IMG/VR virus record: IMGVR_UViG_3300051212_000100
Span: 1 to 28,983 of that record
From: a virus
DNA length: 28,983 bases
Strand: one strand, 5' to 3'
Below the pieces are notes generated by a model. It ran no database searches. It was given only the letters and a program-made list of their open reading frames with translations, and was not told the DNA's origin. The translations under genes were made by a program, and so were the position numbers. Positions 8,131 through 28,533 of this stretch are shown here, one piece after another (within the stretch, counting starts at the first letter, position 1; each line of letters starts with the position of its first letter).

Positions 8131-8148
8131 CCAAACCTGTGCTATGAT

Positions 8149-8182
8149 GGGGGGGACACCTAAATAAGGGTGACCCCCCTTT
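8149..8182 (+). terminator. Terminator-like hairpin with a late octamer in its loop
   Basis: GGGGGG (8150-8155) pairs with CCCCCC (8174-8179). After one A/A mismatch, CACC (8157-8160) pairs with GGTG (8169-8172), and TTT follows. The loop contains CTAAATA. A read-through RNA from mazG would fold it fully. A late RNA starting near 8172 would lack the whole 5' arm. Confidence 0.65.
8159..8166 (+). promoter_or_regulatory. Late-promoter octamer for the ligase-like gene
   Basis: CCTAAATA in the hairpin loop, 22 bases upstream of ATG 8188. Predicted start near 8172, giving a 16-base leader without a clear SD. This rules out the in-frame GTG at 8170 for late RNA. Confidence 0.5.
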
Positions 8183-8187
8183 CTAGT

Positions 8188-9396
8188 ATGAGCAAGAACA
8201 CCCACCTAGAGCACCTGGAAGACAGCATCCTGTTTGACGGAGAGCAGGGTGCTGTGGATGCCTTTGCATTTCTTGATGAGCTTACTAAAACTTTTAGTGG
8301 CACTCAAAATAAAAATTTTAAAATCACTACTAAGTGGGATGGTGCTCCTGCTGTAATCTGTGGTATTGATCCAGAGTTTAAACGTTTCTTTGTGGGCACC
8401 AAATCAGTGTTCAATAAAGATGGTAAAATTAATTATACGGAAGATGACATTCAAGAGAATCATGGTCACGCTCCTGGTCTGGTTGAGAAACTGAAAGTAG
8501 CACTTGAGCATTTTCCTAAATTAAAAATTAAAGGAATCATTCAAGGTGATTTGCTTTTTACTGACGATGGCAAAGATGCTAAGATTGATGGCAAAGATTA
8601 CTTTACCTTTACTCCTAATACTATCACTTATGCTATTCCCAAAGGCACTCCTGCATACGAAAAAGCTAAGCGAGCAAAGATTGGTGTAGTGTTTCATACT
8701 CGTTATGTAGGTAATAGTATTGCAGAATCACGCGCTACTTTTGGGGTTGACATTTCTAAATTTGCTGAAGATGATGACATCTTTGTTATCAGTGCCGAAG
8801 TCGGAACGCTTGGTTCTAATGTATTGTTAAATGCACAGGAGAAGCGCACTCTCACTAACATGAAAAAAGTTGCACAACGCACTTTGCCTGGTTGCAAAAA
8901 ACTTCTGAATGAAATTGCTGCGCTTATTGAAGCAAAAGATAATCTTTCGGTTGGTCCTCGACTCAAAACTTACTTCAACACTTATGTGCGTGAAGGAAAG
9001 AAGGTTAGTAATGTACCTGGATTCATTAATAACTTCAAAAAATATTTTGAAGGTGTGGTAATGAAGGAAGTTGATAAAGCAAAGATGGCAAAGACCAAAG
9101 CAGCAAAACTCAAGAAGCTTTATGATGGCATGGAGTTGATTGACAACAACATGGAAGCGTTTAAGAAATTAGTGATTCTATATAATACTATCAGTAATGC
9201 CAAACTCTTCTTTGTTAAAAAGTTGGAATCAAATGATGCTACTCGCACTTTCCTTCGCACTGAGCATGGATTTAAAGTTACCGCACCAGAAGGATTCGTA
9301 GCAATCAAAGATGGTGCCGCCACCAAACTGGTTGACCGTTTAGAGTTTAGTGTTGCTAACTTTACGATAGACAAAAACTGGGTTAAAGGAGATTAA
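8188..9396 (+). CDS. Uncharacterised ligase-like nucleotidyltransferase (KxDG motif)
   Basis: 402 residues from ATG 8188. It shows the order of motifs expected in the DNA/RNA ligase and capping-enzyme superfamily. Motif I is TTKWDGAPAVICG, with candidate AMP-accepting K49 in KWDG (49-52). A motif III-like GIIQGDLLF is at 116-124 and a motif IV-like IGVVFHTRY at 165-173. There are two later EG(V/F)V segments, EGVVMK (288-293) and EGFVAI followed by TKLVDR (368-383). I recall related unannotated proteins in cyanophages. The motif reading is direct; ligase activity is inference, and substrate (RNA, DNA or other) is unknown. It is translationally coupled to the next gene (TAATG). The first 80 bases are richer in G+C than the rest. 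Confidence 0.6.
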   Translation: MSKNTHLEHLEDSILFDGEQGAVDAFAFLDELTKTFSGTQNKNFKITTKWDGAPAVICGIDPEFKRFFVGTKSVFNKDGKINYTEDDIQENHGHAPGLVEKLKVALEHFPKLKIKGIIQGDLLFTDDGKDAKIDGKDYFTFTPNTITYAIPKGTPAYEKAKRAKIGVVFHTRYVGNSIAESRATFGVDISKFAEDDDIFVISAEVGTLGSNVLLNAQEKRTLTNMKKVAQRTLPGCKKLLNEIAALIEAKDNLSVGPRLKTYFNTYVREGKKVSNVPGFINNFKKYFEGVVMKEVDKAKMAKTKAAKLKKLYDGMELIDNNMEAFKKLVILYNTISNAKLFFVKKLESNDATRTFLRTEHGFKVTAPEGFVAIKDGAATKLVDRLEFSVANFTIDKNWVKGD

Positions 9397-9950
9397 TGAA
9401 ACGAGTAGTCATCACATTCGGTAGATTTAATCCACCAACAACGGGGCACGAAAAACTTCTAGATGCGGTAAAAAGAGCAGCAGGCACGGATGACTATAAA
9501 ATCTATACCAGTCATTCGCAAGATAAGAAAGGAAAAAACCCTCTACCTTCTGATGCGAAGGTAGAGTTTATGAAAGAAATGTTTCCTACCCACAAAAGAA
9601 ACATCATGTATGATAATAAGTTGAAGACCATTATACATGTGCTGCAGAGCTTGCAAGGTGAATATGCTGATGTTACACTGGTTGTCGGTAGTGACCGTGT
9701 ACAAGAAATGGATTTACTGATACAGAAGTATAATGAGAAAGAATATACTTTCAGGAAGTTGGAAACTGTATCAGCAGGAGAAAGAGATCCAGATGCAGAT
9801 GATGTCTCTGGTATGTCAGCAAGTAAGATGAGGAAAGCGATTGCTGAATTGGATATGAAAACCTTCAATTCAGGTATTCCAAGTGCAGTAAAAAAAGACA
9901 AAGATTTTAAAAACCGTTTATTCAAAGCAGTAAGGGAGAATTTACCATGA
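9396..9950 (+). CDS. Cytidylyltransferase/NMNAT-like nucleotidyltransferase
   Basis: 184 residues with a Rossmann-type nucleotidylyltransferase fold. N-terminal FGRFNPPTTGH (8-18) is the phosphate-binding strand-loop with the HIGH-like TTGH. GSDR is at 98-101. SGMSASKMR (138-146) matches the ISSTxxR-type motif that contacts triphosphate. Such enzymes join NTP to a phosphorylated small molecule, for example nicotinamide mononucleotide to NAD or pantetheine phosphate to dephospho-CoA. The substrate cannot be read from the sequence. Its start shares one base with the stop of the ligase-like gene and its end overlaps the following gene by ATGA, so all three are probably made together. Confidence 0.8.
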   Translation: MKRVVITFGRFNPPTTGHEKLLDAVKRAAGTDDYKIYTSHSQDKKGKNPLPSDAKVEFMKEMFPTHKRNIMYDNKLKTIIHVLQSLQGEYADVTLVVGSDRVQEMDLLIQKYNEKEYTFRKLETVSAGERDPDADDVSGMSASKMRKAIAELDMKTFNSGIPSAVKKDKDFKNRLFKAVRENLP

Positions 9951-11776
9951 CCGCACCAGCTATTGCTAGCGTTATTGCAAAACCATATCAGTATCTGGAT
10001 AAGTTTATTCAGTTAATGCGTGAAGGTGCTGAAGTGCCATTTACTGATGAGCAAGTTGCTAGTCGCAGGATTTATAAGGATGGAGAAAGAGTTAAAAAAA
10101 TTCTTTCTGTTTATGATGACCTAGTGGAAAGTGGAATTGATGTTTATGATTCTACGATTCTTTACGATATTTTTCGTGAAGAATCTGGTCAACATCCATA
10201 TAGAAAAATAGAATTCCAAAGTATTACTAATGATAGAGAGATTGAAACTCTTATTCTTAGTAAGATTGGCAAGCAAATTATTTCTGGTCGTGGAGGCAAG
10301 AAAGATAGTTTTCCTGGTAAAGAATCTGATTATACAGAATCATTGCAGTGTGTAGCACTTGCTTATCGTCAGGATGAAGGATCTGATATTACTGAAAATG
10401 GATTTAAAGAATTCTTAATCAAGGGAAGGAATGAAGATGCTACTGTATTGAGGACTGTTAGGGAAAATGTTTTCACTGAGAAACCAATTGTCAAGTTGAT
10501 ACAGTATGGTTTAGAAAATCCAGAGTGGATTACATCTTGCGTTAATGTATCAAATGCTTTATATAAATCCAAGTATTTTAAATCTGGCATTAAATATAAT
10601 TTTTATCATGCTGGCGCAAAAGAAATTGAATGGTTCAAAAGCAAATTTAAAAATAAATTTAATCAAGTTTTGGCAAATGCTCTGAGACAAGAAGGATATG
10701 CTTCTGGAGATTCTGGAGAAGATAAGTGGAACCCTGCTGATATGTTTGCAGTTGCTAAACAAACCAATGAACAAAAGGTAGATAGAGAAACTACGACAAG
10801 AGGATTTTTTAAAGGAACTATTAAAGAGTTTTCTAAATTTAAAAGAGGAAAGAGTGGATTGATAGCATCATCCGAAAAAGTTCAAGAAATGATGGCAGAA
10901 TTAACTCGTTATAATAATTGGATTCATCAAAATATTATGAGTGGAGAGTTTATTCCAATTTCACTTAAAAAAACTTTAAAGACACCAAAGATTCAATTGA
11001 TTTCAAATCCTTCTCTTGAACAATATGATATTGATGTCAGTAATATTAAAGTAGATTGGGCAAAAACAGCACAAAAAATTTATATTAATTTTGATGTGAC
11101 CTATACATTTGTAGTTGGAGAAAAGCAAGAAGTAGAAAAGCATACAACTTCATACTTTTTTGATTGTCGAAATTTTGGAACTGGTACTAACGTTCAATTT
11201 GAATTAGGTATCAATGGTTCTTCTGCTAAACATGGTAAGATTTCTGTTGGACCTGCTTCTATGATTATTGATTTAACTAGTTCTGTGTTTGGGAACATGT
11301 TAAAACAAACTAGAAAAAACTTTTTAACTATTTTAAAAACACCAGGAAAAAGAGGTAAAATATTTCCAGATTTGAATGCTGCTCCTCAAGCAAAAGTTTT
11401 GGATAGTTTTGAATCTAATATAATTAATAAAGGTAAAACAGAATTGTTTACCACTAATGATGATATCAATTCTGTTACTGGAAATTCTGGTTGGCCTGGT
11501 GTATTGGGAAGTTATATTTCTTTTCTATCTAAGCAAGATGGATATAAAATTCCTAAGACAGAAAACGATATGAAAAATTATTTCAAATCTAAAATTGCTG
11601 CTGTTGAATTGGGATGGATGATGACAAGCAAAAAAATTGTACCGACATTAAAAAATAATATTCTAAAATCATTGTATCTTTATGCTTCATCACAAGGTCT
11701 TCAAATATTTGGTGACTCGGGTATGCTTGATAAAAGTTATTTTTATAATTCATCCTATGTTAAAGTTAGGGACTAA
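9947..11776 (+). CDS. 609-residue protein of unknown function, third gene of the nucleotidyltransferase cassette
   Basis: I do not recognise this protein. It has no signal peptide or membrane segment and a mixed helix/strand composition rich in Lys, Asn and Ser. Visible landmarks are GRGGKKDSFPGKESDYTESLQC (basic, glycine-rich, 114-135, here written with its flanks), a DKWNPAD segment at 259-265 that looks like a conserved core motif, and a strand-rich second half (FDVTYTFVVGE, TTSYFFDCRNFG). Base composition is much more AT-rich than in the replication genes, suggesting separate acquisition. It is coupled to the NMNAT-like gene by ATGA, and its stop codon lies inside the late octamer for the next gene. 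Possible roles are a nucleic-acid processing partner of the two transferases or a virion protein. Confidence 0.6.
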   Translation: MTAPAIASVIAKPYQYLDKFIQLMREGAEVPFTDEQVASRRIYKDGERVKKILSVYDDLVESGIDVYDSTILYDIFREESGQHPYRKIEFQSITNDREIETLILSKIGKQIISGRGGKKDSFPGKESDYTESLQCVALAYRQDEGSDITENGFKEFLIKGRNEDATVLRTVRENVFTEKPIVKLIQYGLENPEWITSCVNVSNALYKSKYFKSGIKYNFYHAGAKEIEWFKSKFKNKFNQVLANALRQEGYASGDSGEDKWNPADMFAVAKQTNEQKVDRETTTRGFFKGTIKEFSKFKRGKSGLIASSEKVQEMMAELTRYNNWIHQNIMSGEFIPISLKKTLKTPKIQLISNPSLEQYDIDVSNIKVDWAKTAQKIYINFDVTYTFVVGEKQEVEKHTTSYFFDCRNFGTGTNVQFELGINGSSAKHGKISVGPASMIIDLTSSVFGNMLKQTRKNFLTILKTPGKRGKIFPDLNAAPQAKVLDSFESNIINKGKTELFTTNDDINSVTGNSGWPGVLGSYISFLSKQDGYKIPKTENDMKNYFKSKIAAVELGWMMTSKKIVPTLKNNILKSLYLYASSQGLQIFGDSGMLDKSYFYNSSYVKVRD

Positions 11777-11792: not shown

Positions 11793-12098
11793 ATGAAATC
11801 ACTAAAAGAATTACTACTACAATCAAAACAAAAATCTTATATGCTTGGCAACATGTTTGCTGAGGGTGATTGGGTAGAAAATAATCTAGGTGAAGTTGGA
11901 AAGATTCATCGTCGTGGTGTCAACTATGTCATAGCTGTCACCACTGAAGGTAAGATGTTTCGTGCTTGGGTGAAGGACATCAAAGAACATTGTGGTTGTT
12001 ATCTTACTGATGACGAGCCACTAAAGATGCGTGATGGTTCGGATAATATTGAAAGGGCAAAGGAATTTATAAATAAGTATAAGAAGAAATCCGCATAA
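11793..12098 (+). CDS. Hypothetical protein with an SH3/KOW-like core
   Basis: 101 residues. The core, GDWVENNLGEVGKIHRRG then YVIAVTTEGKMFRAWVKD (about 25-65), reads as a small beta barrel: a D-x-V strand, a G-x-V-G-x-I turn and two further strands, as in KOW or SH3-like domains (inference). A lysine-rich helix ends the protein. It has its own late octamer, and the octamer of the next gene is embedded in its last codons. I place it among late, probably virion-associated, cyanophage proteins but cannot name it. Confidence 0.6.
   Translation: MKSLKELLLQSKQKSYMLGNMFAEGDWVENNLGEVGKIHRRGVNYVIAVTTEGKMFRAWVKDIKEHCGCYLTDDEPLKMRDGSDNIERAKEFINKYKKKSA
12068..12075 (+). promoter_or_regulatory. Late promoter, exact TATAAATA, for the 251-residue gene
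   Basis: Exact consensus embedded in the FINKYKKK codons of the preceding gene. Predicted start near 12081, 23 bases before ATG 12104. Confidence 0.6.
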
Positions 12099-12103
12099 GA
12101 AAA

Positions 12104-12859
12104 ATGAACCTTGATGAGTTTTCTAAACAACTGATTGAAAAGGCACTTGTTCAGTTAGACGAAAAAAGTGAGTGCAACCACACTGGCGCTGGTACATCAT
12201 GCCCTCGCCATGGTGATGCAGATTGCAACTCTTCGAAGCAGAATCGCGCAGAAGAAGTAGAGCACATCGAAGAAAGAAAAGACATGCCTGGCAATCAAGA
12301 GAAGATTGATGCCAACAAAAATGGTAAGGTTGACGCTCATGACTTTGCTTTACTTCGTGCCAAAAAAGGTAAGAAGTCGGTCAAAGAAATGTGGGAGAAA
12401 GCAGCAGAAGTTCAAGAAGGATACGGCAAGAGTAAAAAAAAAGCCGTAGATGAAGGCAAGAAAGTAGAAATTGAAATCATGCCTGACGTTGATACTCCCA
12501 ACGACCCAGAACCACCTACAGGAAAGAAAGCAAAGAAAGAAGTTAAGAAAGAAGAGTTTGCTGCTGAAGGTAAGAACAAGGAAGGCAAGGAGCAAGGTGC
12601 CGATGGCAAAGCTTGCTGGAAAGGTTATAAGTATGCTGGCACAGAGAATGGTAAAGACAAGTGTGTGAAGGCAGGATACGAAATGGAAGGTGGCGAAGAA
12701 CTTCAAGAGAAGCGTCTTTCTGCTAAAGAAAAAGCAAAGAAAGAAAAGTTCGTTAAAGGTATGAAGAAGAAGTTCGGCAAGATGAAATCAAAGTATGGTA
12801 ACAAGGCACAGTCGGTGATGTTTGGTGCCGCTACCAACATGGCAAAGAAAGCAGCCTAA
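12104..12859 (+). CDS. Lysine-rich late protein with EF-hand-like loop, possibly virion-associated
   Basis: 251 residues, highly charged. Residues 65-86 (ending NGKVDAHDFALL) contain an EF-hand or dockerin-like loop, D-x-N-x-N-G-x-V-D. Residues 160-191 hold a Cys/Trp segment (GKACWKGYKYAG, then KDKCVKAGYE), a small module I associate with cyanophage proteins. Cys are also found at 24, 33 and 41 with two His, a possible metal site. The C-terminus is a long Lys-rich helix (EKAKKEKFVKGMKKKFGKMK). It has a consensus late promoter and a poor SD. A scaffold, core or decoration role is a guess. Confidence 0.6.
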   Translation: MNLDEFSKQLIEKALVQLDEKSECNHTGAGTSCPRHGDADCNSSKQNRAEEVEHIEERKDMPGNQEKIDANKNGKVDAHDFALLRAKKGKKSVKEMWEKAAEVQEGYGKSKKKAVDEGKKVEIEIMPDVDTPNDPEPPTGKKAKKEVKKEEFAAEGKNKEGKEQGADGKACWKGYKYAGTENGKDKCVKAGYEMEGGEELQEKRLSAKEKAKKEKFVKGMKKKFGKMKSKYGNKAQSVMFGAATNMAKKAA

Positions 12860-13063: not shown

Positions 13064-13224
13064 TTACCTGTTTTCTGACGAACTGGGGTGTCACAATAGT
13101 TCTTGGTTTTCTTTTATCATTGTCTGAGTGGTTATCAAAAACAAAAAGAACTCAAGCAAACGGTATCTTAGATTTCATGCAGTTGTTTCTGAGAACTGTT
13201 TTACGCAAGGGAGACCAGAAGTAA
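13060..13224 (+). CDS. Small single-span membrane protein (54 residues)
   Basis: One clear membrane segment (VTIVLGFLLSLSEWL, about 11-25), then a basic stretch (SKTKRTQ) and an amphipathic helix (FMQLFLRTVLRK). Starts by an ATGA overlap with the previous gene, so translation is probably coupled. Its stop codon lies in the loop of the terminator that ends the unit. Could take part in lysis or membrane remodelling, but nothing specific supports this. Confidence 0.65.
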   Translation: MITCFLTNWGVTIVLGFLLSLSEWLSKTKRTQANGILDFMQLFLRTVLRKGDQK

Positions 13225-13238
13225 GGTCTCCCTTTTTT
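13209..13238 (+). terminator. Strong terminator fused to the next late promoter
   Basis: GGGAGACC (13209-13216) pairs perfectly with GGTCTCCC (13225-13232) across an eight-base loop holding the stop codon, followed by six T. The last T is the first base of the next TATAAATA. Confidence 0.9.
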
Positions 13239-13245
13239 ATAAATA
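13238..13245 (+). promoter_or_regulatory. Late promoter, exact TATAAATA, for the Ig-like protein gene
   Basis: Exact T4 late consensus directly behind a strong terminator. Predicted start near 13251, a 30-base leader with GAGGA before ATG 13281. The best-supported late promoter here. Confidence 0.75.
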
Positions 13246-26916: not shown

Positions 26917-26989
26917 GACTCAGTAGCTCAGTGGATAGAGCAACTGCCTTCTAAGCAGTCGGTCGTTGGTTCGACCCCAACCTGAGTCG
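26917..26989 (+). tRNA. tRNA-Arg (anticodon TCT)
   Basis: Acceptor GACTCAG pairs with CTGAGTC. D arm TAGCTCAGTGGATAGAGC, anticodon stem ACTGC/GCAGT with TCT at 26950-26952, T arm GTTGG-TTCGACC-CCAAC. CCA is encoded (26990-26992). Reads AGA. Confidence 0.95.
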
Positions 26990-26992
26990 CCA

Positions 26993-27064
26993 GGGAGATT
27001 AACTCAGCGGTAGAGTGGCTGCCTTACAAGCAGTAAGTCGTTGGTTCGAGTCCGACATTTCCCA
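26993..27064 (+). tRNA. tRNA-Val (anticodon TAC)
   Basis: Begins directly after the CCA of tRNA-Arg. Acceptor GGGAGAT pairs with ATTTCCC (one G-T). Anticodon stem GCTGC/GCAGT with TAC at 27025-27027, T arm with GTTCGAGTC. CCA not encoded. Reads GTA and GTT-type codons. Confidence 0.93.
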
Positions 27065-27073
27065 TATAAGATT

Positions 27074-27304
27074 ATGAATACATATTATATCTCTCTAATA
27101 TTACTCTGTGCGATGATTTATATCATCTGGCAAGATCCAAACGTGCCAGAGTATATTAACCTCAGGATAAAACTTCTTCACATCAACTTTATTCGTTGGA
27201 ACATGGCAAGAAATATGAAGCGACAACTTGACAAAGAATCTAAAAAAATGCAAAAAGAAATGGCAGAGTGGTTAAAAGAAAAAAATGGCAAAGATAAGAT
27301 GTAA
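27074..27304 (+). CDS. Small membrane protein (76 residues)
   Basis: Starts at ATG 27074 (MNTYYISLILLCAMIYIIW), 10 bases behind tRNA-Val; the longer frame would run through the tRNA. One membrane segment (about 4-19), then a helical basic domain (LRIKLLHINFIRWNMARNMK, KESKKMQKEMAEWLKEKNGK). No SD seen. Ends 20 nt inside the next gene. Not recognised. Confidence 0.6.
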   Translation: MNTYYISLILLCAMIYIIWQDPNVPEYINLRIKLLHINFIRWNMARNMKRQLDKESKKMQKEMAEWLKEKNGKDKM

Positions 27305-27542
27305 CGCTTGCGGAACTGAATTAGAAGTATACCAAGCAAATAAAAGTAAAGGATGTGGATGCCCTAACCATACAATGATAAGGTTAGATAGGAATGGTAT
27401 GCCCATCATCACAGGCAATGACCTTTCATTAGTAACGGCTATTGATGGTATTGGAAAACCGAAAGACAAAAAGCTTGACAGCTCACCAATTCCATCGTAT
27501 ACTAAGAGGGTTCCAAGAAAATTGGATTTTGAGGTCAGATAA
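27285..27542 (+). CDS. Small zinc-ribbon-like protein (85 residues)
   Basis: C6-N-A-C9 followed by C24-G-C26-P-N-H29 gives a plausible zinc-binding CxxC...CxCxxH site. The rest is beta-like (HTMIRLDRNGMPIITG) with a short basic tail (TKRVPRKLDFEVR). Resembles small cyanophage zinc proteins I cannot name. The 3' end contains a sigma70-type promoter, and the stop codon lies in a late octamer, so the gene ends within two promoters. Confidence 0.65.
   Translation: MAKIRCNACGTELEVYQANKSKGCGCPNHTMIRLDRNGMPIITGNDLSLVTAIDGIGKPKDKKLDSSPIPSYTKRVPRKLDFEVR
27475..27503 (+). promoter_or_regulatory. Sigma70-type promoter for the 47-residue gene and tRNA-Ser(GCT)
   Basis: TTGACA (27475-27480), 17-base spacer, TATACT (27498-27503). 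Perfect -35, five of six at -10, within the preceding coding region. Confidence 0.65.
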
Positions 27543-27545
27543 ATA
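27538..27545 (+). promoter_or_regulatory. Late octamer over the stop codon of the zinc-ribbon-like gene
   Basis: GATAAATA containing the TAA stop at 27540-27542. Predicted start near 27551, 21 bases before ATG 27572. Confidence 0.5.
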
Positions 27546-27571
27546 ATTAACAGCAATTACGATTTAGAATC

Positions 27572-27715
27572 ATGCCAACAGTTTTTTCTTACGTTCTAGG
27601 TAGACCAGCAGTTCAACAAACAATTGAAACATATGAATTACCAGAAGAAGTAACTTCATCGATTCTTGACGACGCACCTGCTGCAGCACCTGCTGAAGAG
27701 GCACCAGCTGAATAA
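27572..27715 (+). CDS. Small acidic protein (47 residues)
   Basis: MPTVFSYVLGRPAVQQTIET followed by YELPEEVTSSILDDAPAAAP and a Glu/Ala/Pro end. A short beta/helix head with an acidic Ala/Pro/Glu tail. Preceded by both an early-type and a late-type promoter, and followed by tRNA-Ser nine bases later. Clear codon structure but no known family and no SD. Confidence 0.55.
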   Translation: MPTVFSYVLGRPAVQQTIETYELPEEVTSSILDDAPAAAPAEEAPAE

Positions 27716-27724
27716 TTCCTGACT

Positions 27725-27815
27725 GGAAGTGTGGCAGAGCGGTTTAATGCAGGGGATTGCTAATCCCCCGATGTCTTTTTGTGGGCATCCGTTGGTTCAA
27801 ATCCAACCACTTCCG
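27725..27815 (+). tRNA. tRNA-Ser (anticodon GCT)
   Basis: Acceptor GGAAGTG pairs with CACTTCC. Anticodon stem GGGGA/TCCCC with GCT at 27759-27761. Long variable arm (GATGTC paired with GGCATC), T arm GTTGG-TTCAAAT-CCAAC. Class II tRNA. Reads AGC/AGT. Confidence 0.93.
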
Positions 27816-27816
27816 T

Positions 27817-27834
27817 TGCCCTTATGGGCATTTT
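27817..27834 (+). terminator. Weak terminator after tRNA-Ser(GCT)
   Basis: TGCCC (27817-27821), loop TTAT, GGGCA (27826-27830), then TTTTG. Five-pair stem directly behind the tRNA. Confidence 0.6.
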
Positions 27835-27857
27835 GTAAACTGATACATTAAAAAAGT

Positions 27858-28220
27858 ATGAAACAACTGATTGCTCTTGCTGCTCTTCCGATGATTGCAG
27901 CACCTGCTATGGCAGCTCCTTATGTGGAGTCGAAAACCACTACTGCTCTTTCTGATGGCACTTACAAGGGTGCTCAAACCGAACTTCGTATCGGTTACGA
28001 TCAGAAAGTTGGTAACGGTGTGACTGTCTTTGCTGAAGTTGGTCCTGGTTATGAATGGACTAATGGCGCGGATGGTCAAGGCGTTGCCGTTGGTGAAGTT
28101 GGTATCAACTTCCCTATCGCTAATCAACTCTCTGGTAAATTCAAAGTTGCTGGTGAGTATGGTTTCGATTCCGAAGTGTTCGGTCTCGGTGGTGAACTGA
28201 AAGTTCGTTACTCGTTCTGA
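27858..28220 (+). CDS. Exported, outer-membrane-like beta-barrel protein (120 residues)
   Basis: Signal peptide MKQLIALAALPMIAAPAMAA with cleavage after AMA. The mature 100 residues alternate polar and hydrophobic positions (TELRIGYDQKVG, VTVFAEVGPGYEW, VAVGEVGINFP, SGKFKVAGEYGF, FGLGGELKVRYSF) as in transmembrane beta strands, and the last residue is Phe, the usual outer-membrane targeting signal. An eight-stranded or incomplete barrel is possible. Codon use and G+C (about half) differ from neighbours, suggesting a bacterial origin. Sits between two serine tRNAs. Confidence 0.7.
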   Translation: MKQLIALAALPMIAAPAMAAPYVESKTTTALSDGTYKGAQTELRIGYDQKVGNGVTVFAEVGPGYEWTNGADGQGVAVGEVGINFPIANQLSGKFKVAGEYGFDSEVFGLGGELKVRYSF

Positions 28221-28233
28221 TGATCAAGGGGGG

Positions 28234-28270
28234 TTGACAAGACCCCCGACCTCCTATATAATATGGAGGT
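28234..28270 (+). promoter_or_regulatory. Perfect sigma70-type promoter with inverted repeat around the -10 box
   Basis: TTGACA (28234-28239), 17-base spacer, TATAAT (28257-28262). ACCTCC (28249-28254) and GGAGGT (28265-28270) form a perfect inverted repeat either side of the -10 box. The -35 box lies in the loop of a second inverted repeat, GGGGGT/ACCCCC (28229-28247), which may also end the upstream transcript. Drives tRNA-Ser(TGA), tRNA-Pro and glutaredoxin. Confidence 0.8.
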
Positions 28271-28278
28271 CAACAAAT

Positions 28279-28363
28279 GGAAGTGTGTCCGAGTGGTTGA
28301 AGGAACTTGTCTTGAAAACAAGCATGGTGAAAGCCATCGTGGGTTCGAATCCTACCACTTCCG
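28279..28363 (+). tRNA. tRNA-Ser (anticodon TGA)
   Basis: Acceptor GGAAGTG pairs with CACTTCC, identical to the other Ser tRNA. Anticodon stem CTTGT/ACAAG with TGA at 28313-28315. Variable arm ATGG/CCAT, T arm with GGTTCGAATCC. Reads TCA. Confidence 0.94.
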
Positions 28364-28453
28364 TTGCTACTTGCGCTGGAAAGATAAACCAGAATGCCGT
28401 AGCAAGATAGAGGGTAAGCCTCTGTTATATCCTTGAGGTATATTACGCTTACT
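28364..28453 (+). ncRNA. Possible structured RNA between tRNA-Ser and tRNA-Pro
   Basis: No gene here. TTGCTAC (28364-28370) pairs with GTAGCAA (28399-28405), enclosing CTGG/CCAG (28376-28379 with 28389-28392). GTAAGC (28414-28419) pairs with GCTTAC (28447-28452). All are transcribed from 28234 with the tRNAs. A processed RNA, processing signal or tRNA remnant are all possible. Confidence 0.4.
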
Positions 28454-28459
28454 CCATCA

Positions 28460-28533
28460 CGGGATGTAGCTCAGTTTGGTAGAGCACCCGCTTTGGGAGC
28501 GGGTGGCCGTAGGTTCAAATCCTATCATCCCGA
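28460..28533 (+). tRNA. tRNA-Pro (anticodon TGG)
   Basis: Acceptor CGGGATG pairs with CATCCCG. D arm TAGCTCAGTTTGGTAGAGC, anticodon stem CCCGC/GCGGG with TGG at 28494-28496, T arm with GGTTCAAATCC. Reads CCA. Confidence 0.95.

What the first reader, a model, noticed from the sequence alone, without database searches (positions are those of the whole stretch)
8188..11776. Coupled cassette: ligase-like nucleotidyltransferase, NMNAT-like enzyme and an unknown 609-residue protein
Three genes joined by a TAATG and an ATGA overlap, all behind one late octamer. The first shows KWDG (motif I, K49), GIIQGDLLF, IGVVFHTRY and EG(V/F)V segments in the order of the ligase/capping superfamily. The second has TTGH and SGMSASKMR of NMNAT-type enzymes. 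Together they could repair or modify RNA ends (NAD or another cofactor as donor or cap), or serve an NAD-linked counter-defence. The motifs are seen; the joint function is inference.
Basis: partly seen in the sequence, partly recalled or inferred. Interest (0 to 1): 0.85.

Follow-up and report, generated by a model that had tools for sequence, protein, structure and literature searches.

The report
Cyanophage ligase-like and NMNAT-like gene cassette
In viruses of marine and freshwater cyanobacteria, three neighbouring genes that travel together encode an uncharacterised enzyme with the active-site signature of ligases that join DNA or RNA ends, a nucleotide-transferring enzyme of a type found inside virus particles, and an unknown protein of a family also found in particles; the first is a candidate for the ligase these viruses have seemed to lack.

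Summary
P1 (402 aa) is Pfam DUF6267 (function unknown). P2 (184 aa) is an NMNAT/cytidylyltransferase-like HIGH nucleotidyltransferase. P3 (609 aa) has no Pfam match.

In 66 P1 relatives the residues of ligase/capping motifs I (K49-W-D-G), III, IIIa, IV (E368-G-x-V) and V (K380) are invariant and in order. The AlphaFold model (pLDDT 88) has no significant PDB match; its first annotated viral neighbour outside the family is a phage RNA ligase (E 0.008), and ligases and capping enzymes crowd the weak PDB hits. Sequence profiles do not link P1 to known ligases.

The cassette is real: 54 of 60 informative P1 contigs carry P2 within 3.5 kb, P1-P2 fusions exist, and P3 relatives flank them in either order. 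Eleven sampled related genomes carry DUF6267 but none of four known ligase families.

Published mass spectrometry finds P2 relatives in virions; one P3 relative is annotated as a virion protein. Many P1/P2 relatives start with T4-like capsid-targeting leaders; the window's do not.

Best reading: a K49-adenylylating, ligase-like enzyme acting on nucleic-acid (probably RNA) ends with an NMNAT-like partner. The chemistry is unproven.

The parts
8140..8190 (+). Probable leader of the cassette: TGCTATGAT (extended -10-like) followed by a hairpin whose loop carries the late-octamer-like CCTAAATAA, ending at the P1 start codon
   Evidence: Fold -28.7 kcal/mol, z -5.0; recurs in relatives with diverged stems (8 rows with the window); 2 of 10 consensus pairs have two-sided changes, some pairs are broken in some rows, covariation term +0.22
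8188..9396 (+). P1, 402 aa, DUF6267 (T4-GC 71): predicted covalent-lysine nucleotidyltransferase of ligase/capping type; K49 motif I, Q119-D121 motif III, H170-Y173 motif IIIa, E368-V371 motif IV, K380 motif V; helical insertion about 216-347
   Evidence: Pfam PF19782 E 4e-119; invariant motifs; AlphaFold model pLDDT 87.6; Foldseek
9396..9950 (+). P2, 184 aa, HIGH-superfamily nucleotidyltransferase, NMNAT/cytidylyltransferase-like (T4-GC 190)
   Evidence: PF01467 36.6 bits against cut-off 21; phrog_3041 and phrog_395; G9, R10, P14, G17, H18, S141 and R146 invariant in 42 relatives
9947..11776 (+). P3, 609 aa, cassette protein of unknown fold (phrog_1462 / phrog_26248; T4-GC 533 relative); a relative in phage S-SCSM1 is annotated as a virion protein
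   Evidence: AlphaFold pLDDT 81, no PDB fold match
11793..12098 (+). Small 101-aa protein (T4-GC 534 type, annotated elsewhere as ribonucleotide reductase alpha subunit); its domain is fused C-terminal to P2 in many relatives
   Evidence: phrog_4808 and phrog_395; fusions

Best explanation
P1 is a divergent, minimal ligase-type nucleotidyltransferase. K49 attacks ATP (or NAD+) to form lysyl-AMP, with E368 and K380 in their usual motif IV/V roles, and AMP is passed to a 5'-phosphate so that a nick or break is sealed. The substrate is most likely RNA, such as cleaved tRNA. P2 is an NMNAT-like adenylyl/cytidylyltransferase working in the same pathway. P3 is a partner of unknown activity in the same operon and, in relatives, in the particle. 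In related phages the set is expanded with end-processing or nucleotide enzymes and at least P2 is carried in the virion, so the likely role is to repair or protect nucleic-acid ends, or to service nucleotide cofactors, from the start of infection. Shown here: gene linkage, fusions, motif invariance. Published by others: P2 relatives detected in virions, one P3 relative annotated as a virion protein. Inferred: lysyl-AMP chemistry, RNA substrate, joint pathway, timing.
For: Motif residues I, III, IIIa, IV and V are invariant and in order. K49 follows a strand and motifs III-V lie on strands in a confident model. Viral Foldseek: outside the DUF6267 family the first annotated hit is an RNA ligase (E 8e-3, prob 0.84), and several other RNA/DNA ligases appear in the top 50. 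PDB Foldseek: by my count 18 of the top 50 are DNA/RNA ligases or capping enzymes, all individually weak. The single hhalign local match to T4 Rnl1 is exactly motif IV-V. P1-P2 linkage in 54 of 60 contigs and fusion in L045/L049 and, by the structural hit, S-PM2. Companion genes in relatives: P-loop AAA_33/zeta-like kinase, adenylate kinase, Pol-beta-like nucleotidyltransferase and PAP2 phosphatase, adjacent or fused; Pol-beta enzymes of the RlaP family accompany phage RNA ligases (PMC7824862). P2 family in virions (PMC3037559, PMC9602691, PMC9146016, PMC10665884); P3 relative S-SCSM1 ORF90 annotated as virion protein.
Against: No significant sequence-profile or PDB fold match to any ligase. 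No OB-fold or other domain after motif V. Motif III reads QGD rather than the usual GE (recalled). P1 was not found in the S-SZBM1 virion protein table as read here although P2 was. The window's own P1 and P2 lack capsid-targeting leaders. P2's NMNAT specificity is not established: it falls far below the NCBIfam cut-offs. No RlaP family hit was found; the Pol-beta-like domain is matched only weakly.
Confidence: 0.45

Rival explanations
1. P1 is the missing replicative DNA ligase of T4-like cyanophages: it seals Okazaki fragments in place of T4 gp30, and P2/P3 are accessory.
For: P1 lies in the replication cluster polymerase-uvsX-gp41-mazG-[cassette]-gp61. Eleven DUF6267-bearing genomes related to this phage (7 cyanophages, 4 long contigs) have no PF01068, PF01653, PF09414 or PF09511 match; T4 has three of these four families and no DUF6267. 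A review states that g30 homologues are not found in cyanomyoviruses and leaves distant homologues open (PMC2984593).
Against: No OB-fold domain; the structural neighbour list is led by RNA ligases; jumbo phage XaC1 carries DUF6267 as well as canonical ligases; host ligase could suffice (PMC2984593); CTS-like leaders on many relatives suggest packaging, odd for a replication ligase; the genomes sampled are related, so absence is not independent evidence.
Confidence: 0.2
2. The cassette is an injected NAD or nucleotide-metabolism kit: P2 makes NAD+ (or another dinucleotide) early in infection, P1 is an adenylyl- or guanylyltransferase modifying a small molecule, protein or RNA cap, and no ligation occurs.
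For: NMNAT-like proteins are repeatedly found in cyanophage virions and proposed to raise NAD+ (PMC9602691, PMC10665884). Adenylate kinase and other small-molecule kinases neighbour P1 in relatives. P1 has no evident nucleic-acid-binding domain besides the core.
Against: Structural neighbours are mainly ligases; no NAMPT-type partner was noticed; P2 relatives also occur in phages whose P1 was not found, so P2 may have its own role.
Confidence: 0.2
3. P1-P3 are virion or internal head proteins that have kept an enzyme fold but act mainly in head assembly or genome ejection.
For: P2 family, and a P3-family protein by annotation, occur in virions; 15 of 44 distinct P1 leader peptides fit the T4 CTS rule; the cassette borders a head-protein gene.
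Against: Catalytic motif residues are invariant in P1 (66 sequences) and P2 (42), which a purely structural role would not need; P1 was not in the S-SZBM1 virion list as read here.
Confidence: 0.1

Closest known systems
DUF6267 (PF19782, phrog_455, T4-GC 71)
   Same: P1 is a full-length member (4e-119, 376 of 376 profile positions)
   Different: The family carries no function; the ligase-like motif assignment is new as far as the library searched shows (no paper holds the name)
T4 RNA ligase 1 / RNA ligase 2 (Rnl1, Rnl2)
   Same: KxDG motif I (Rnl1), EGxV motif IV and motif V lysine in the same order; local profile match at motif IV-V of Rnl1; weak fold similarity to Rnl2
   Different: No significant profile score; long helical insertion before motif IV; no C-terminal domain; motif III QGD
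NAD+-dependent DNA ligase LigA adenylation domain
   Same: Weak fold similarity (3jsn, 3jsl, 1b04, 5fpr, 6lw8)
   Different: No PF01653 match in the sampled genomes or in P1; no evident domain Ia, one N-terminal helix instead
NMNAT / NadR / PPAT-type HIGH nucleotidyltransferases
   Same: PF01467 above cut-off; TxGH and MSxSxxR motifs invariant or nearly so
   Different: No PDB sequence relative at E<0.01; NCBIfam equivalog cut-offs not reached, so substrate unknown
T4 internal proteins and Alt with capsid-targeting sequences
   Same: Leaders such as MYSFKQYLNE|A, MKSFLQFLKE|A and MRFRQFIIE|A obey the L/I-x-E rule of gp21 (PMC9026906); P2 relatives bearing them are found in virions
   Different: The leader is absent from the window's P1 and P2; cleavage not shown

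Membership tests
Ligase/capping covalent nucleotidyltransferase superfamily | Motif I KxDG with the nucleophilic lysine conserved | tested here: met
   K49, D51 and G52 invariant in 66 sequences
Ligase/capping covalent nucleotidyltransferase superfamily | Motifs III, IIIa, IV (EGhV) and V (K) downstream in order, on strands | tested here: met
   Q119-D121, H170-Y173, E368-V371 and K380 invariant; strands 117-124, 165-174, 370-374, 377-381. Motif III is QGD, not canonical GE
Ligase/capping covalent nucleotidyltransferase superfamily | Significant sequence-profile similarity | tested here: not met
   No Pfam ligase, PDB or hhalign hit of significance
Ligase/capping covalent nucleotidyltransferase superfamily | Shared fold | tested here: inconclusive
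   PDB Foldseek best E 0.1, ligases and capping enzymes over-represented; viral RNA ligase E 8e-3, prob 0.84
Ligase/capping covalent nucleotidyltransferase superfamily | Lysyl-nucleotidyl intermediate | not testable with these tools
   Needs an adenylylation assay with a K49A control
NAD+-dependent DNA ligase | PF01653 adenylation domain and domain Ia | tested here: not met
   No PF01653 match in P1 or in 13 searched genomes/records; model has one N-terminal helix; domain Ia itself was not searched
T4 Rnl1 / Rnl2 RNA ligase families | PF09511 / PF09414 match | tested here: not met
HIGH nucleotidyltransferase (CTP_transf_like) | PF01467 above gathering cut-off, (H/T)xGH and SxSxxR motifs | tested here: met
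   36.6 bits against 21; G17, H18, S141, R146 invariant
NMN adenylyltransferase proper | NCBIfam equivalog cut-off, NMN substrate | tested here: not met
   28 bits against cut-offs 341 and 112; substrate not testable here
T4-type capsid-targeted internal protein | N-terminal leader with cleavage after L/I-x-E | tested here: not met
   Not in window P1/P2; present in 15 of 44 distinct P1 leaders and in several P2 relatives
PD-(D/E)XK nuclease (considered for P3) | E, D and (E/S)xK residues on an alpha-beta core of that fold | tested here: inconclusive
   D265, S339 and K341 present in all 37 rows, E131 in 36, seen by eye in A3; no fold match
T4 late promoter | TATAAATA octamer | tested here: not met
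   The site reads CCTAAATA; no exact TATAAATA lies just upstream of P1

The most novel reading that the evidence does not exclude
P1 and P2 form a self-recycling NAD+-driven ligase pair: P1 takes AMP from NAD+ to seal nucleic-acid ends and releases NMN, and the fused or operon-coupled P2 turns NMN and ATP back into NAD+, in some phages pre-loaded in the virion so that repair starts at once.
Probability: 0.1. Interest if true: 0.88.

Novelty: new variant of a known kind. Interest (0 to 1): 0.6.

Why it matters
T4-like cyanophages are among the most abundant marine viruses, and a published review left open whether they have no DNA ligase or one too divergent to find. DUF6267 is present in all seven cyanophage genomes and four long contigs tested here, lies in the replication cluster beside its NMNAT-like partner in most of them, and has an invariant ligase-type active site, so one K49A adenylylation and ligation assay can test the question. 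If it is a ligase, hundreds of 'hypothetical protein' records gain a function, and NMNAT-like proteins in virions become part of a nucleic-acid end-processing kit and not only a NAD supplier.

Tried and rejected
Sequence search of P1, P2 and P3 against PDB: nothing meaningful. hhalign of P1 against T4 Rnl1, Rnl2 and gp30 and ten non-ligase control families: all insignificant, best ligase scores about the same as the best controls apart from the motif IV-V register. Pfam at E up to 10 on divergent P1 members: only DUF6267 plus chance hits. P3 as a PD-(D/E)XK nuclease: residue pattern suggestive, fold search negative, so not claimed. 'EGVV' as motif IV: rejected, not conserved. Late octamer alone as promoter evidence: rejected, the heptamer is not enriched. 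The S-SZBM1 gene directly upstream of DUF6267 (SZBM1_142) is not a detectable P3 relative. CTS pattern as evidence on its own: UvsX N-termini also match it, so it is weak alone.
Full report
What is there. P1 8188-9396 (402 aa) overlaps P2 9396-9950 (184 aa) by TAATG, and P2 overlaps P3 9947-11776 (609 aa) by ATGA. Upstream lie genes for a DnaB-like (gp41-type) helicase and MazG, whose domains were matched. The 830-aa polymerase, UvsX and gp61 primase genes are assigned from position and from the annotated order in Syn1 and S-MbCM7. The window is a 28,983-base virus record. P1 relatives are mostly in Synechococcus and Prochlorococcus phages.

P1. P1 is Pfam DUF6267 over its whole length (E 4e-119) and T4-GC 71 in annotated cyanophages. 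tblastn finds it in 465 phage records. In 66 non-redundant relatives the invariant columns include K49-W-D-G, Q119-G-D, H170-T-x-Y, E368-G-x-V, K380 and R384. That is the order of motifs I, III, IIIa, IV and V of ligases and capping enzymes (established knowledge of that superfamily). Five more distant members, aligned, keep D51, G52, E368, G369, V371 and K380; K49 was near-invariant there because one row began inside the motif, and the full ORF of that gene reads KMDG. The AlphaFold model has mean pLDDT 87.6: K49 directly follows strand 44-48, motifs III-V lie on strands, residues 216-347 are a long helical insertion, and the chain ends soon after motif V. Short members lack much of the insertion.

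Is P1 a ligase-fold protein? PDB Foldseek has no hit below E 0.1. By my count 18 of the 50 listed hits are NAD+ ligases, T4 Rnl2, Naegleria RNA ligase, capping enzymes or DNA ligase III; many of the rest are carbonic anhydrases and coiled-coil proteins. Against predicted viral structures, ranks 1-13 (E<0.001) include recognisable DUF6267 proteins; the first clearly annotated protein of another family is an Agrobacterium phage RNA ligase (E 8e-3, prob 0.84), followed by several other RNA and DNA ligases. hhalign to T4 Rnl1 finds only the motif IV-V segment, in correct register. Profiles do not reach significance. I therefore say that P1 works like, and probably belongs to, this superfamily, but membership is not proven.

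P2. P2 scores 36.6 bits to PF01467 (cut-off 21). TxGH and MSxSxxR residues are invariant or nearly so in 42 relatives. NMN specificity is not established. It is T4-GC 190.

P3. P3 has no Pfam match. Iterative profiles collect 44 relatives within the fetched loci. In 34 loci P3 ends within about 350 bases upstream of P1 (in most within a few), and in 9 (window included) it follows P2. The same gene family thus flanks P1-P2 in either order. Not all loci have it: of 43 contigs with room on both sides, 19 carry a detectable P3. Conserved residues (D265, S339-L-K341 in all 37 rows; E131 in 36) resemble a nuclease pattern by eye, but no fold match supports it.

Linkage. Of 60 viral contigs with at least 3.5 kb downstream of P1, 54 have P2 within 3.5 kb; the six exceptions appear to share one type of leader. 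P1 and P2 form one 591-aa ORF in L045 and L049, and a 591-aa S-PM2 protein with a cytidyltransferase name is the top structural hit of P1. P1 and P2 occur in nearly equal numbers of cyanophage records (Synechococcus 366 and 374, 'Cyanophage' 61 and 61, Prochlorococcus 24 and 24). Escherichia, Klebsiella and Pseudomonas phages appear among the ten commonest names only for P2, so P2 probably also occurs without P1. In some cyanophages (P-SSM2, S-SSM7, P-TIM68, S-SCSM1) a short DUF6267 copy sits elsewhere, unlinked to P2.

Companions. In relatives, genes between or fused to P1 and P2 encode adenylate kinase, an AAA_33/zeta-like P-loop kinase, a Pol-beta-like nucleotidyltransferase (weak matches), a PAP2 phosphatase domain and DUF5824. 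Kinase, Pol-beta nucleotidyltransferase (RlaP) and ligase together are the known make-up of phage RNA-repair sets (PMC7824862). That is why RNA is preferred here as substrate; it is inference, and no RlaP family hit was obtained.

Virion link. T4-GC 190 is listed as an experimentally determined virion protein (PMC3037559). P2 relatives were found by mass spectrometry in S-SCSM1 (PMC9602691), S-SZBM1 (PMC9146016) and S-CREM2 (PMC10665884); the authors note that carry-over is possible. The protein before P2 in S-SCSM1, ORF90, matches the P3 profile (1.3e-77) and its record labels it 'virion protein'. S-SZBM1_141 (DUF6267) was not found in that phage's list. T4 internal proteins are targeted by about ten N-terminal residues and cut after L/I-x-E (PMC9026906). 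Of 44 distinct P1 leaders 15 meet the strict rule, and P2 relatives such as S-SCSM1 ORF91 (MKSFLQFLKEA) and S-SZBM1_140 (MRFRQFIIEA) also carry an L/I-x-E site near the start. The rule is loose: UvsX also fits. The window's P1 starts where the leader would end, and its P2 has no leader.

Missing ligase. Genomes or long contigs (7 cyanophages and 4 contigs) have DUF6267 and no PF01068, PF01653, PF09414 or PF09511; T4 has three of the four families and no DUF6267; Xanthomonas phage XaC1 has DUF6267 and canonical ligases. A 2010 review says rnh and g30 homologues are not found in cyanomyoviruses (one RNase H excepted), leaves open distant homologues, and thinks absence more probable (PMC2984593). 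These genomes are related and few, so this is a lead, not a proof.

Regulation. Ahead of P1 a TGCTATGAT box is followed by a hairpin with CCTAAATA in its loop, recurring in relatives although the stem bases change. RNAalifold finds two pairs with two-sided changes but a covariation term of +0.22 and several broken pairs. The late-promoter reading is plausible, not shown.

Verdict. Observation confirmed. Interpretation partly supported: a conserved cassette with a ligase-like active site and an NMNAT-like partner is well supported; end repair, NAD chemistry and counter-defence are not tested.

Noticed in passing
window 8140-8190 and relatives L009-L015: Hairpin with the late-octamer-like CCTAAATAA in its loop, behind a TGCTATGAT box and directly before the P1 start codon; stem sequence varies between relatives while the loop is nearly constant.
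   Followed up: partly
L011:2099-2211: A tRNA-Ser-like sequence lies between MazG and P1 in this relative, upstream of the same hairpin (read by eye, not run through ARAGORN).
   Followed up: no
window 13207-13245: A strong terminator-like hairpin is followed at once by an exact TATAAATA late octamer.
   Followed up: no
window 11793-12098: Small protein annotated elsewhere as 'ribonucleotide reductase alpha subunit' has no such similarity in Pfam; its domain is fused to the C-terminus of the NMNAT-like protein in many relatives.
   Followed up: partly
L046, L051, L081, L029, L097: P2 relatives form large multidomain proteins with Pol-beta-like nucleotidyltransferase, AAA_33/zeta-like kinase, PAP2 phosphatase or DUF5824 domains, several with capsid-targeting-like leaders.
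   Followed up: partly
L047:4801-5382, L048:1244-1825, L104:1261-1857: Adenylate kinase genes with leaders such as MKSFRDFIFE shortly after P1.
   Followed up: partly
P-SSM2 58.6 kb, S-SSM7 42 kb, P-TIM68 48 kb, S-SCSM1 221 kb: Short DUF6267 copies (about 270-320 aa) sit away from the NMNAT-like gene.
   Followed up: partly
window 12104-12859: 251-aa protein with a dockerin/EF-hand-like stretch (DANKNGKVDAHDFALLRAKKGKK) between the cassette and a predicted head protein.
   Followed up: no
window 26917-28533: Five tRNA genes (Arg, Val, Ser, Ser, Pro).
   Followed up: no
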